A DNA stretch of 36,420 nt from Bacteroidales bacterium (GTDB lineage: Bacteria > Bacteroidota > Bacteroidia > Bacteroidales > UBA12170), in the NCBI GenBank assembly GCA_021158405.1, contig JAGGUP010000036.1:1-36420 (forward strand), in the 5' to 3' direction. The notes under the pieces were generated by a model, which made no database searches, was not told where the DNA came from, and saw nothing but the letters and a program-made list of their open reading frames with translations. This document shows positions 1 to 5,300 of this stretch, in pieces. Both the position numbers and the translations under genes were made by a program. Position 1 is the stretch's first letter. The number at the start of each line of letters is the position of its first letter.

Positions 1-2
1 AT

Positions 3-107
3 AATGTAAGTTTATACTTTATTGCTCAAACTTTTTGGGGCGATAAAGGCACAGAATATGGCGATATTGGACAAATGTACTTTAGTCGTTTGCAGTGGAA
101 TTTTTAA
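3..107 (+). CDS. 3' end of an outer-membrane beta-barrel-like protein (partial)
   Basis: An open frame enters from the left edge and stops at TAA 105-107, giving 34 residues ending in ...SRLQWNF. There is no start codon in the window, so only the C-terminus is visible. Alternating hydrophobic and aromatic residues (LYFIAQTFW, MYFSRLQWNF) and a terminal Phe are typical of the last strand of outer-membrane barrels. The family cannot be named from this tail. It could belong to an intact gene cut by the window or to a remnant like the others in this region. A different frame over 22-210 is judged spurious. Confidence 0.5.
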   Translation, partial: NVSLYFIAQTFWGDKGTEYGDIGQMYFSRLQWNF

Positions 108-110
108 TAC

Positions 111-183
111 ATCGAGGCTTTTCGTTCTCTTCTCAGGGCAAATCTTAATATTTACAAAGCACTTTTGTTATAGCTTATCAAAC
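111..183 (+). repeat. Possible decayed copy of the 1040-1161 hairpin element
   Basis: GGCTTTTCGTTC at 116-127 is identical to 1084-1095. Further short matches follow in the same order: AGGGC 135-139 against CGGGC 1108-1112, AAGCAC 157-162 against AAGCGC 1130-1135, TTATAGC 168-174 against 1145-1151, and CAAAC 179-183 against 1152-1156. The offsets all fall between 968 and 977. The left arm is missing. Like the intact copy it lies just downstream of a stop codon (107). This is suggestive, not proven. Confidence 0.35.
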
Positions 184-249
184 AACCCAAAAGAAAATTT
201 ATATTATTAACTGAATAAAACCAATACGTTATAAGCTTAATCACTATGC

Positions 250-341
250 TCGCAAAGTAAATACGCAACGTTCGCAAACATATAAATTTCTGATCTATGA
301 CATTTTGCGTCCCTTGCGCATCTCTTAGCATTCCTTGCGTT
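250..341. repeat. Foldback repeat of CGCAA / TTGCG units
   Basis: The left arm (about 250-279) carries three CGCAA units: CGCAAAG, ACGCAACG and TTCGCAAA. The right arm (about 303-341) carries TTTTGCGTC, CCTTGCGCA and CCTTGCG, so the two arms can pair as an imperfect hairpin. Related foldbacks occur at 5301-5363 and 6792-6873. Such short-unit repeats are widespread in noncoding DNA of this phylum, and their function is unknown. Confidence 0.5.
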
Positions 342-505
342 TAAATTTAGATGCGTTACCCTCGTTTTCTCTTCTCCCAATTTTTATTCTCAAAATAAAG
401 CCTTAACTTTGATGTATATAAACAAAAAACATATATCCTGACTTATAGGGATATATTATGTGATTTTATGTATATATAATACCCTTATGGGTGATTTTAG
501 AAAAA

Positions 506-1027
506 ATGAAAAACATAATTATTGTAATATCATTTTTAGTTTTTACAGTTTCTGTAAATGCTCAAAACATTAATTTTGACTCAATACAGATCAATGAAAA
601 CATTTCGCTTTTAATTGACTTTGATGAATTAGTCAAACTCAACTTAATTGACAGTATAGTGCCTATTCCTGAATTAATGGATATGTCAACAGCTGATTCA
701 TTAATTTATGTTGGGAGTACATATTTTGAATATTACAAAAAGGAAAATTACTGTAGAATTAATGTCATCAAATTTGACAAAAAAATTAAAACAGTTACTA
801 TTAATAAAACAAGGTTAAATCAATTCACGACTTTTCAAGACATCAAAAAAATGTTTCCTATTGATTGTCCAACAAAACACTCAGTAAGTATTTATGGAGA
901 TAGCAGTGAGTATTTTACATGCGGTGTATGGCTTAAGACAACTCAGGGAACATTACTGGACGTAAAATTGGTTTTTTACTTTATAGAAAATAAATTAGTA
1001 CGGTTAGACTTATGGGAACCAAGTTAA
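506..1027 (+). CDS. Small secreted protein of unknown function
   Basis: This gene encodes 173 aa. I chose the ATG at 506 rather than the in-frame GTG at 491 because a clean signal peptide begins there: MKN, a hydrophobic run IIIVISFLVFTVSV, then a cleavage site after NAQ. The mature part is acidic to neutral, with a central FQDIKKMFPIDCP segment and two or three cysteines, and no motif I recognise. It is probably periplasmic or exported. A long hairpin begins 13 bp after the stop. It sits in an accessory region with unrelated neighbours, so context gives no function. Confidence 0.75.
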   Translation: MKNIIIVISFLVFTVSVNAQNINFDSIQINENISLLIDFDELVKLNLIDSIVPIPELMDMSTADSLIYVGSTYFEYYKKENYCRINVIKFDKKIKTVTINKTRLNQFTTFQDIKKMFPIDCPTKHSVSIYGDSSEYFTCGVWLKTTQGTLLDVKLVFYFIENKLVRLDLWEPS

Positions 1028-1039
1028 AACTACCCCTAA

Positions 1040-3067: not shown

Positions 3068-3949
3068 ATGAATAAGGCAAAAACATCCATACGTTTTTTT
3101 GACGACCGCGAAGTGCGTGCCGTTTGGGACGAAAAAAATGCCAAGTGGTGGTTTTCGGTGTTGGATATTGTTGCCGTGCTTACCGACCAAAACGACTATA
3201 CCAAAACCCGCAACTATTGGAAATACCTTAAAGCTAAATTGAAGAAAGAAAACAGTCAAGTGGTTAGTGCTACTACCCAGTTGAAATTTCTTGCACCAGA
3301 TGGCAAGATGCGTTTAGCTGATATGTTGGATTATAACGGCATTATTGCATTGGGCAAAGAGTTTCCTAGCAAAAAAGCAAACCAATTTATTGAATGGTTT
3401 ACATACAGTGATGGGAGTATAGACGGAAAAAGTAAAACAAAAGCGTATGCCTTGTTTGGAAGTTCATTTATCAACAGCATTGAAGTTGGCACAACCAAAG
3501 GCTTGCAACAAATTCACGCTTATTTATTTGGCGGCTTGTATGATTTTGCTGGACAAATCAGACAAAAAAACATTTCAAAAAGCGGTTTTCAATTTGCTGT
3601 ATCACGCTTTTTGGGTAAAACATTAAAACAAATAGAAGCAATGCCCGAAACTACATTTGACGAAATCGTGAATAAATATGTAGAAATGAACATTGCACAC
3701 CCGTTTATGGAAGGAAACGGCAGAAGTACCCGAATATGGTTGGATTTAATATTGAAAAAACGCCTAAGAAAATGTGTAGATTGGAGTAAAATAGGCAAAA
3801 GAGATTATATGAACGCAATGATGCAAAGCCCAACAAATAGCAACGTTCTTAAAAAATTGTTAATAAACACTTTAACCAACAAAATTAACGACCGTGAAAT
3901 GTTTATGAAAGGAATTGACTATTCGTATTACTACGAAGAAAATGACTAA
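3068..3949 (+). CDS. Bro-N / Fic fusion, class III-type AMP transferase
   Basis: This gene encodes 293 aa. Residues ~8-115 resemble the Bro-N / prophage antirepressor-like domain (VRAVWDEKNAKWWFSVLDIV, a YWKYLKAKLKKE segment, LAPDGKMRLADML). Residues ~125-293 are a Fic domain close to the short Neisseria-type proteins: EVGTTKGLQQIHAYLFGGLYDFAGQI, then the catalytic HPFMEGNGRSTR at 211-222 with His211. The C-terminus carries the inhibitory motif (S/T)xxxE(G/N) as S286-YYY-E290, with Glu instead of Gly/Asn at 291. This fits class III Fic enzymes, which AMPylate targets such as GyrB when self-inhibition is relieved. Target and DNA binding are inferred, not shown. No antitoxin gene is adjacent. 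It is flanked by direct repeats. Confidence 0.88.
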   Translation: MNKAKTSIRFFDDREVRAVWDEKNAKWWFSVLDIVAVLTDQNDYTKTRNYWKYLKAKLKKENSQVVSATTQLKFLAPDGKMRLADMLDYNGIIALGKEFPSKKANQFIEWFTYSDGSIDGKSKTKAYALFGSSFINSIEVGTTKGLQQIHAYLFGGLYDFAGQIRQKNISKSGFQFAVSRFLGKTLKQIEAMPETTFDEIVNKYVEMNIAHPFMEGNGRSTRIWLDLILKKRLRKCVDWSKIGKRDYMNAMMQSPTNSNVLKKLLINTLTNKINDREMFMKGIDYSYYYEEND

Positions 3950-3997
3950 GAACAAATGATTTGCAAAGACATAACAACGTAAACCACCAGCACATAC

Positions 3998-4106
3998 GCA
4001 ATATAAAAAATTGAGCAGAAAGTGATAAATATAAGCGAATTAGCATTAAATAAATGGTGTAGTAAATTGAAAAATTTTGAGTTTTAAAACACCAAACACA
4101 CTATAT
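3998..4106 (+). repeat. Direct repeat copy 2, downstream of fic (decayed)
   Basis: This is the partner of 2759-2880. The coding part is broken: the Trp codon of INWAES is TGA here. Of 11 substitutions in the first ~92 bp, eight are G/C in copy 1 and A/T here, as expected for drift without selection. The noncoding part keeps a hairpin, GGTGT...TTGAAAA against TTTTAAAACACC, and ends in CCAAACACACTAT. Confidence 0.75.
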
Positions 4107-4167
4107 AAAATCGTTAAGTAAAAGCTTTACACTTTACAAATAAAATCAGCACATAAAATAAACAAAA

Positions 4168-5046
4168 GTGAAAAACAAAATAGACCAAGACAAATGTGCA
4201 AAATGTAAACTTTGTATAGAAGTCTGCCCAGTAAATTATATAGGTATTGATGAAAATGGCTTGGTAAATTTCATTCCGGAGCGAGAAGAAATTTGTTTGG
4301 AATGCGGACAATGTATGGCGGTTTGTTCTACCAATGCCGTAAAAATTTCAAAATATTCTTACGAAACTGATTTTGAACAATTCCCAACAGAGACTTTTAA
4401 TTTTCAGGAATTTAAAGATTTTGTTTCAACACGTCGCTCAATAAGGAATTTTAAAGATAAACCCGTTGAAAAAGAAATCCTAGAACAAGTATTAGAAGTC
4501 TTGCAATATGCACCTTATGGAGCAGAGCCAAATAAAGTAGAAATATCAATAATAAACAATAGAAAAAAAATAGAAGAGCTATTAGCTCCAACCGAAAAGT
4601 TTCTTGATGATGTTGTAAAATGGATAGACAGTCCAATTGTAAGTAGAATTATAAAATTAAAAAAAGGAATAGAAACTTTTAATACCTTGAAAAATCATTT
4701 ATATCCAATGTCTAAACTTGAAAATTACAAACTAAAATATGGAGACAGAATTACAAGAGGAGCACCTGCTTTAATGGTTTTTCACGCAGAAAAAGGAGCA
4801 GAAGAACATACACATAATACATTGATTTATGCTACTTATGTTATGCTTGCGATACACTCAATGGGTTTAGGTGCTACAATAAATGGAATTGTTCCTGCTG
4901 CAATAAACAAAGTTAATGAGATTAGAAAAGTTTTTAATATTCCCAATGATCACGAAGCGGTAATTTCCATAATGTTTGGTCACCCAAAGTATAAATATAA
5001 TAAAGTCGTAAAACGAGAGCCTAAAAAGATAAATTGGATTGAATAA
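4168..5046 (+). CDS. Ferredoxin-nitroreductase fusion protein
   Basis: This gene encodes 292 aa and starts at GTG; no ATG precedes the first motif. Residues 1-60 are a bacterial-type ferredoxin with two 4Fe-4S motifs, C10xxC13xxC16xxxC20P and C43xxC46xxC49xxxC53. Residues ~85-285 form a nitroreductase fold with STRRSIRNFKDKPV and a late LGATINGIV segment, expected to bind FMN. Such fusions are soluble oxidoreductases thought to pass electrons from Fe-S donors to a flavin. The natural substrate is unknown. It is the last intact gene of the accessory block, and its sequence is complete with no sign of damage. Confidence 0.88.
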   Translation: MKNKIDQDKCAKCKLCIEVCPVNYIGIDENGLVNFIPEREEICLECGQCMAVCSTNAVKISKYSYETDFEQFPTETFNFQEFKDFVSTRRSIRNFKDKPVEKEILEQVLEVLQYAPYGAEPNKVEISIINNRKKIEELLAPTEKFLDDVVKWIDSPIVSRIIKLKKGIETFNTLKNHLYPMSKLENYKLKYGDRITRGAPALMVFHAEKGAEEHTHNTLIYATYVMLAIHSMGLGATINGIVPAAINKVNEIRKVFNIPNDHEAVISIMFGHPKYKYNKVVKREPKKINWIE

Positions 5047-5070
5047 TGTTTTCGCCTATCAAAAACTATA

Positions 5071-5193
5071 GCATTTTGGAACAGATTATTGAAAAATGAA
5101 ATCTTAAAATACCAAAGCTATTCAGATGAATGGATTAAAAATAAGAAATTGATTTTGGAATTTAACAGATCAGGACAAAACACGACAGGGTAA
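5071..5193 (+). pseudogene. Orphan 3' coding fragment
   Basis: The frame, open from 5047 without ATG, encodes AFWNRLLKNEIL, KYQSYSDEWIKNKK, LILEFNRSGQNTTG and TAA at 5191-5193. The three-residue spacing of aromatic and charged residues looks like real protein, but there is no start and no recognisable family. It is probably another gene tail left by rearrangement. The DNA at 5086-5121 also loosely resembles the 3' part of the direct repeats, which keeps this call uncertain. Confidence 0.3.
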
Positions 5194-5300
5194 ACCATCT
5201 AATTTAAATGCAAGAATGGAAAAGACATCCCCAAATAACACAAAATATTAAATATCAGCAGTTTATAATTTATTACGCTTTAAATCTTTAAATTAATGAA

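What the first reader, a model, noticed from the sequence alone, without database searches (positions are those of the whole stretch)
1..5300. Cassette-like accessory array with structured or repeated DNA after genes
Directly seen: four intact, same-strand, functionally unrelated genes lie in a row. Each of the first three is followed by structured or repeated DNA: the hairpin at 1040-1161 after the first, and direct-repeat copies at 2759-2880 and 3998-4106 after the second and third. A decayed hairpin copy follows a partial gene at the left edge. All four junctions contain a CCAAAC- or TCAAAC-type motif near their right end (178-183, 1151-1156, 2869-2874, 4092-4097). The rest of the window is conserved core genes. 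Inference: this could be an integron-like (CALIN-like) or other recombination-driven cassette array with non-standard sites.
Basis: partly seen in the sequence, partly recalled or inferred. Interest (0 to 1): 0.62.

Follow-up and report, generated by a model that had tools for sequence, protein, structure and literature searches.

The report
Hidden integron-like gene cassettes in Bacteroidota
The window begins with a small array of unrelated genes separated by partly decayed recombination sites, which belong to a widespread integron-like gene-shuffling system of Bacteroidota that appears not to have been described.

Summary
Three of the four reported elements are real (1032-1166, 2748-2883, 3988-4111); the "decayed copy" at 111-183 is not supported. 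Both element types fit one site family: AAC/GTT outer arm, short unpaired spacer, inner arm of 6+4+6 pairs interrupted by two A.C mismatches, and an inner loop usually of 72-73 nt. A structure model trained without window sequence finds the window's sites, sites in 44 of 60 genomes near the window's (its own included), and sites in 171 of 395 genomes sampled across the phylum. Sites start within 30 nt of a same-strand stop codon in 65 of 92 cases (random 5.6%), and all 40 neighbouring pairs share a strand. The window's genome has two Xer-like tyrosine recombinases and no integron integrase, so its array is CALIN-like. Relatives carry an IntI-like recombinase without the IntI-specific insertion, often with HARP-like N-terminal modules. 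Of 22 such genes, 10 have sites nearby; the other 12 lie within 504 nt of a contig end on their 3' side. Inferred mechanism: integron-type cassette recombination at G^TT. No recombination was observed, and the window's copies are degenerate. Ten literature searches listed no description of this class.

The parts
491..1027 (+). cassette gene 1, 178 aa as listed from GTG (ATG at 506 equally possible), no Pfam match
1032..1166 (+). attC-like site A1: AAC 1041-1043, right box GTT 1158-1160; one A.C mismatch kept, the other position is a bulged C; large inner hairpin
   Evidence: R2 36.3 bits, E 5.5e-6; fold z -3.39; diverged copies at G000:C168:640-757 and G000:C81:18368-18450
1256..2647 (+). cassette gene 2: RCC1-repeat protein with C-terminal Por secretion tail, 463 aa
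2748..2883 (+). attC-like site B1: AAC 2754-2756; the right box reads ACT at 2875-2877 instead of GTT
   Evidence: R2 71.3 bits, E 6.5e-14; starts 104 nt after the stop by the R1 boundary
3068..3949 (+). cassette gene 3: Bro-N + Fic/DOC protein, 293 aa
   Evidence: the Bro-N part is 38% identical over 107 aa to an ORF on G000:C168
3988..4111 (+). attC-like site B2, decayed; R2 matches only 4010-4097 and the right arm is shortened
   Evidence: R1 87.4 bits (R1 was trained on it); R2 23.1 bits, E 0.0056
4168..5046 (+). cassette gene 4: 4Fe-4S ferredoxin + nitroreductase, 292 aa; no site after it
5670..6686 (-). flanking peptidase gene (called M28 here by recall), conserved in the genus; right border of the array
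   Evidence: found in 10 of 11 genus genomes

Best explanation
The left 5 kb of the window is a remnant (CALIN-like) cassette array of an integron-like system of Bacteroidota. Each cassette is a promoter-poor accessory gene followed by an attC-like site of about 122-124 nt from AAC to GTT. In the active form the site would be recognised as a folded single strand. The AAC/GTT arm marks the exchange point (G^TT), the unpaired spacer and the two A.C mismatches replace the unpaired spacer and extrahelical bases of classical attC, and the 72-73 nt inner part is a variable terminal structure. A tyrosine recombinase of the IntI branch, without the IntI-specific insertion and often fused to HARP-like N-terminal modules, would insert cassettes at an attI-like site just 3' of its own gene, giving arrays in the same direction as the recombinase. 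The window's genome has lost or never had the recombinase, so its sites decay. Shown: site family, covariation, position after genes, same-strand arrays, linkage with the recombinase in relatives, absence of that recombinase in the window's assembly. Inferred: single-strand recognition, exchange at G^TT, attI, and the role of the N-terminal modules.
For: Covariation: 27 sites, 89.7% of 621 cells paired against 65.7% shuffled, score 0.607 against 0.145 shuffled and at most 0.093 slid (these arms were picked by a scanner that demands pairing). Not picked by arms: of 42 R1 hits outside R1's training set, 34 have at least 13 of 16 arm pairs against 36 of 203 swapped arm pairs, and 28 of the 34 have A.C at both mismatch positions. 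Scanner: 28 hits in 621,807 bases, 0 in one block-shuffled control (two hits are the same 141-nt sequence). Position: 65 of 92 sites within 30 nt of a same-strand stop, random 5.6%, reversed reading 9 of 92; 40 of 40 neighbouring pairs on one strand. Identity between sites of different genomes runs up to GTT and stops there. Recombinase: of the 22 places with at least 100 bits to TIGR02249 but under its cut-off, 9 have sites 0.5-8.6 kb 3' on the same strand, 1 (L165) has sites on the divergent side, and 12 have the contig end at most 504 nt 3' of the stop, against 1 of 22 with a contig end as close on the 5' side. Genomes with the recombinase have sites in 23 of 24 cases, without it in 21 of 36 (Fisher p 0.0011), mean 10.4 against 3.3 sites. 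Predicted structure: best PDB match is integron integrase VchIntIA, 2a3v, E 1.8e-17, then archaeal XerA, 1.5e-16. Tree: recombinases and canonical IntI together, 99/99 apart from the two Xer proteins of the window's genome.
Against: No cassette exchange was seen. The one apparent case is a MITE inserted at the right box. Genomes without the recombinase often carry sites (21 of 36). The recombinases lack the insertion said to be essential for IntI function (passage in PMC8138268). Canonical attC sites of a Bacteroidota integron (L060) are not found by R2. Predicted folding favours the bottom strand only slightly (42 of 74 sites, mean -0.75 kcal/mol, Wilcoxon p 0.007) and favours the top strand for window B1 and L041. 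The strict scanner finds none of the window's sites. The comparisons are not corrected for relatedness or genome size.
Confidence: 0.82

Rival explanations
1. The elements are transcription terminators or REP/MITE-like repeats that accumulate behind genes; no recombinase acts on them.
For: They lie just 3' of genes and are hairpins; some genomes hold many copies.
Against: Terminators do not conserve A.C mismatches at fixed positions, an AAC/GTT box or a 72-73 nt loop. Sites are found in same-strand arrays (40 of 40 pairs), are absent from 16 of 60 genomes at E<=0.01, and accompany one recombinase family. Between sites, identity ends at GTT, not at inverted repeats. I saw no terminal inverted repeats on the site itself.
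Confidence: 0.07
2. The array is a classical integron or CALIN with ordinary attC sites and an IntI integrase missed by assembly.
For: Architecture and boxes resemble attC; one genome of the class, G201, has a true IntI with short attC-like sites.
Against: TIGR02249 at E<=1e-60 in 1 of 395 class genomes against this site type in 171 of 395 phylum genomes. R2 does not find the G201 sites. The associated recombinases score 163-220 bits, below the 265 cut-off.
Confidence: 0.06
3. The sites are fossil or parasitic landing pads: insertion sequences and group II introns use them, but cassette shuffling has ended.
For: A 255-bp MITE with the terminal repeats of an adjacent DUF772 transposase sits at the right box in G334; group II introns sit in sites of G000 and G199; window copies are degenerate.
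Against: In many genomes the sites are intact and contigs break at the recombinase-array junction; two of these contigs end exactly at GTT or GTTA (L168, L149), which suggests current variation.
Confidence: 0.05

Closest known systems
Sedentary chromosomal integrons (IntI + attI + attC arrays)
   Same: Same-strand arrays of accessory genes each followed by an imperfect hairpin site with AAC/GTT box, spacer, interrupted arm and terminal structure; a tyrosine recombinase of the IntI branch nearby.
   Different: Recombinase lacks the IntI-specific insertion and often has HARP-like modules; array mostly runs in the same direction as the recombinase (9 of 10 loci with sites); arm interruptions are opposed A.C mismatches; inner part usually 72-73 nt.
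[quoted passage not shown]
   Same: The window has several sites and no integrase in the assembly.
   Different: Sites are of the new type; the published attC model was not run.
XerC/XerD and archaeal XerA recombinases
   Same: Fold and catalytic residues; NF040815 (XerA_Arch, 'tyrosine recombinase/integron integrase') scores 191-219 bits against a cut-off of 220.
   Different: Separate from the two Xer proteins of the window's genome in the tree (99/99); linked to cassette arrays.
Group IIC-attC introns and attC-targeting insertion sequences (recalled; only the abstract of PMC7923331 was seen, in the listing)
   Same: Introns and an insertion-sequence-like element sit inside these sites.
   Different: Host sites are the new type; intron class was not determined beyond RF01999.

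Membership tests
integron (classical, IntI-based) | IntI integrase with the IntI-specific insertion | tested here: not met
   Own genome: two Phage_integrase genes, best TIGR02249 74 bits. Linked recombinases of relatives: 163-220 bits, cut-off 265, matched in two stretches around profile 180-240.
integron (classical, IntI-based) | attC sites: imperfect palindrome with AAC/GTT box, unpaired spacer, interrupted arm | tested here: met
   For the site family. In the window A1 meets the boxes, B1 lacks GTT, B2 is shortened.
integron (classical, IntI-based) | array of cassettes, one or few genes per site, same orientation | tested here: met
   for 94 sites; window order gene-site-gene-site-gene-site-gene.
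integron (classical, IntI-based) | attI site beside the integrase | tested here: inconclusive
   In ten of 22 loci a GTT junction is visible by eye 60-330 nt 3' of the recombinase stop; no statistical test. None in the window's genome.
integron (classical, IntI-based) | integrase-dependent recombination of the folded bottom strand | not testable with these tools
   Only a weak folding preference for the bottom strand (42 of 74).
CALIN | cluster of attC sites without a neighbouring integrase | tested here: inconclusive
   Sites clustered and no integrase found, but the published attC model that defines CALINs was not available.
MITE / REP-like repeat | terminal inverted repeats or target duplications, placement independent of gene orientation | tested here: not met
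   Strong orientation and stop-codon bias; identity ends at GTT. Target duplications were not examined.
Rfam families | match at gathering score | tested here: not met
   0 matches in the window.

The most novel reading that the evidence does not exclude
Bacteroidota carry their own phylum-wide class of integrons with HARP-fused, insertion-free integrases and A.C-marked folded sites; canonical IntI is a derived branch of this radiation, and such integrons have handed resistance genes such as tet(X3) to other phyla.
Probability: 0.4. Interest if true: 0.93.

Novelty: new variant of a known kind. Interest (0 to 1): 0.85.

Why it matters
Integrons are described as very rare in Bacteroidetes: a passage of the IntegronFinder 2.0 paper (PMC9024848) reports only In0 earlier and one complete integron in Salinibacter. 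If right, a large part of the phylum carries overlooked cassette arrays (171 of 395 sampled genomes), so a major route of gene gain has been missed in gut, soil and marine bacteria. It makes three open questions testable: how single-strand sites can be recognised without the IntI insertion, whether HARP-like modules read the folded DNA, and how IntI arose from Xer-like enzymes (IntI nests inside this group, though with weak support of 86/82). It also gives a candidate origin for the 'xerD/tpnF' fragment that precedes tet(X3) in Acinetobacter.

Tried and rejected
Element A was not found by DNA similarity in 59 relatives, and a 27-base pattern of it not in the species collection; a 24-base pattern of element B hit one record. 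Both were uninformative because the arms change; the structured model was needed. R1 by RNAalifold had no base pair, so it scored sequence only. A shared downstream sequence at four G334 junctions first looked like cassette exchange but is a MITE insertion, so I dropped it; my notebook entry 6 still has the old reading. A second shared start (L145/L133) repeats inside one locus and may also be an insertion, so it is not used. My notebook statement that no same-genus relative has elements beside the M28 gene was too strong: it rested on five loci, while G009 has a weak site (37.3 bits) 1.8 kb away and G002 the recombinase and a site 5.7 and 8.9 kb away. A strong strand preference in folding was expected from the A.C positions, but the effect is small. 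Whether the published attC model recognises the sites could not be tried. The first structure job (single sequence) was not finished when last asked and was not collected. Population-level cassette turnover could not be tested: the collections hold one genome per species. In one search, B2 and the sites on G000:C105, C168 and C179 were not among the 94; one palindromic reverse hit was dropped.
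Full report
What the window holds. The window is contig 5 of an unnamed assembly (2.94 Mb, 187 contigs, 96.3% complete). Its first 5.3 kb hold four same-strand ORFs with unrelated content. After the first lies an imperfect hairpin, after the second and third two copies of a 118-nt repeat. The left-edge copy proposed at 111-183 has no support. 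Copies of the elements lie elsewhere in the genome beside a Fic ORF (C168), a DUF6364/PIN pair (C81) and a YefM/YoeB pair (C88). The structured model lists seven sites in the genome at E<=0.05, on contigs C88, C5 (two), C179, C81, C56 and C105; the diverged C168 copy and B2 are not among the seven.

One site family. A pattern of the repeat's core found one named record, a Cyclobacteriaceae assembly (L055), where a hairpin ending in CCGTTAGC starts 10 nt after a gene. A sequence-only model of five copies (R1) then matched 129 of 395 genomes of the class at E<=0.01. Reading 47 of these hits showed a common plan: (C/T)AAC, about 3 nt, a left arm of 6+A+4+A+6, usually 72-73 nt, a right arm of 6+C+4+C+6, 5-6 nt, GTT. 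A scanner for this plan gave 28 hits in 621,807 bases (22 of 28 with an inner length of 72 or 73 nt) and none in one block-shuffled control. The window's hairpin and its repeat, which look unlike each other, both fit the plan loosely: the strict scanner rejects them, while the model built from 27 other sites (R2) accepts them.

Covariation. On the 27 training sites 89.7% of 621 cells pair (shuffled mean 65.7%; slid 28.5-35.6%), with covariation 0.607 against 0.145. Adding the two window sites gives 87.4% and 0.570. Because the scanner demanded pairing in the inner arm, I also tested hits chosen by the inner loop sequence alone: 34 of 42 have at least 13 of 16 arm pairs, against 36 of 203 when arms are swapped between sites, and 28 of those 34 have A.C at both interruption positions. 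The outer box beyond AAC/GTT pairs in only 8 to 19 of 27 sites per position, as expected if the right box belongs to the next cassette, but this is also what no constraint would give.

Position and arrays. Of 94 sites (27 of them the training set), 92 have enough upstream sequence; 65 start within 30 nt of a same-strand ORF stop, against 5.6% of random positions and 9 of 92 when the strand is reversed. All 40 neighbouring pairs of sites share a strand, with gaps of 470-8830 nt. Examples are a six- to seven-site series in a single-contig genome (L145, two of the sites weak) and four sites behind a recombinase (L130). Between genomes, sites up to 92% identical over about 110 nt lose identity exactly at GTT.

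Distribution. R2 matches 44 of 60 genomes near the window's, own genome included, and 9 of 10 of the same genus, with 0 to 28 matches each at E<=0.01. It matches 171 of 395 genomes sampled across the phylum at E<=1e-4, with only eight candidates scored per genome. A canonical IntI (TIGR02249, E<=1e-60) is in 1 of 395 genomes of the class; that genome (G201) has two short attC-like sites beside it, which R2 does not find.

The recombinase. The window's genome has two Phage_integrase genes, which score 181 and 146 bits with the recombinase profile, in the Xer range. One search lists 22 places in relatives with at least 100 bits to TIGR02249 but under its cut-off. I fetched all 22. In nine, sites lie 0.5-8.6 kb 3' of the gene on its strand; in one (L165) they lie on the divergent side. 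In the remaining twelve the contig ends at most 504 nt after the stop codon; on the 5' side only one of 22 (L130) is that close to a contig end. Contigs L149 and L168 end at GTTA and GTT, at what looks like the junction of attI and first cassette; by eye ten loci show a GTT junction 60-330 nt after the gene. This is what an assembler does when the next cassette varies in the population, but it could also reflect repeats. With a profile of the recombinase, 24 of 60 genomes score 226 bits or more; 23 of these have sites, against 21 of the other 36 (Fisher p 0.0011), and they have more of them (10.4 against 3.3). Relatedness and genome size were not corrected for.

What the recombinase is. It has Phage_int_SAM_4 and Phage_integrase domains, invariant R, K, HxxR, H and Y positions (except in truncated L151), and scores to TIGR02249 of 163-220 bits (cut-off 265) and to NF040815 of 191-219 (cut-off 220), above XerC/D. 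It lacks the profile region of about 180-240, the IntI-specific insertion. Many members carry one to three N-terminal modules; a profile of 15 modules has SMARCAL1's HARP domain (4o66) as its best PDB match, E 7.7e-4. Pfam HARP appears in 2 of 18 members scanned, below the curated cut-off. L158 has no such extension. The AlphaFold2 model of L152 (pLDDT 78.5, pTM 0.45) has integron integrase 2a3v as best PDB match. In a 23-row tree the group and two IntI proteins stand apart from the two Xer proteins (99/99); IntI falls inside with weak support (86/82), and one Xer row is long.

Gene turnover. The neighbouring nitroreductase-peptidase pair is kept in the genus. In the eight same-genus loci that I fetched around it, none of the four window proteins has a homologue by tblastn (E<=1e-6); three of these loci have under 700 nt beyond the peptidase gene. 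In G009 a weak site lies 1.8 kb from that gene, and in G002 the recombinase and a site lie 5.7 and 8.9 kb from it. So this neighbourhood has received the system more than once, or keeps remnants of it.

Other users of the sites. A MITE of about 255 bp sits at the right box in G334, and the same terminal repeat borders a DUF772 transposase at a site in G167. Group II introns (RF01999) begin at the same place of the right arm in sites of G000:C81 and G199. Both groups of elements are known, by recall, to use attC sites.

Link to tet(X3). A search of plasmids with L152 gives 240 records; the best are Acinetobacter plasmids with a truncated recombinase 70.6% identical over 43% of the query. It lies 190 nt before tet(X3), on its strand, in the three records that I opened. 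A GTT junction stands 18 nt before the gene. The stretch after it resembles the left part of the site family: best alignment score 50, highest of 200 shuffles 40. R2 does not call a site there. The surrounding unit is known as dISCR2-xerD-tet(X3)-res-ISCR2 (passages of PMC8635130). That tet(X3) left a Bacteroidota integron this way is my inference. The same search also gives many rhizobial records, so distant relatives of the recombinase are not confined to Bacteroidota.

Literature. Ten searches, of which I saw the listings, gave no description of this site type or of such integrons in Bacteroidota. Passages were read in PMC9024848, PMC8618304, PMC9668308, PMC8635130 and PMC8138268; a look in PMC8352920 found no mention of Bacteroidetes or Flavobacteria. 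The library holds only open-access papers and no bioRxiv preprints, so an existing description cannot be excluded.

Verdict. It works like an integron, by anatomy and linkage. It is not a member of the classical IntI-defined family, because the IntI insertion was tested for and is absent. I rate it a new variant of a known kind.

Noticed in passing
L187-L189 (Acinetobacter and uncultured plasmids): A truncated recombinase of this family lies 190 nt before tet(X3), with a GTT junction before the gene and a site-like stretch after it.
   Followed up: partly
L110, L112, L113, L115 (G334); L135 (G167): A MITE with CAGACTGTCTAA-type terminal repeats sits at the right box of sites; the same repeat borders a DUF772 (IS1182-like, recalled) transposase.
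   Followed up: partly
L039:8876-8983 (-), L129:8002-8120 (+): Group II introns (RF01999) begin at the same position of the right arm in sites of two genomes.
   Followed up: partly
L039, about 8355-8460 (-): A truncated copy of element A in the window's genome stops directly at a tRNA gene (leucine by eye), next to the intron-bearing site.
   Followed up: no
L060 (G201:C40), 1-4542: A canonical IntI with a 93-aa N-terminal extension and two short attC-like sites, the only IntI over cut-off in 395 class genomes.
   Followed up: partly
L145:11359-13740 (-): Several paralogues of one short membrane protein family (DUF6090 by recall) occupy successive cassettes.
   Followed up: no
L145:12134-12190, L139:700-770, L138:116-184: R2 also picks up short sites of about 57-71 nt among the long ones, closer in size to classical attC.
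   Followed up: no
L130:1907-2489: A stretch between the recombinase and its first cassette reads N in the record, which hides the likely attI there.
   Followed up: no
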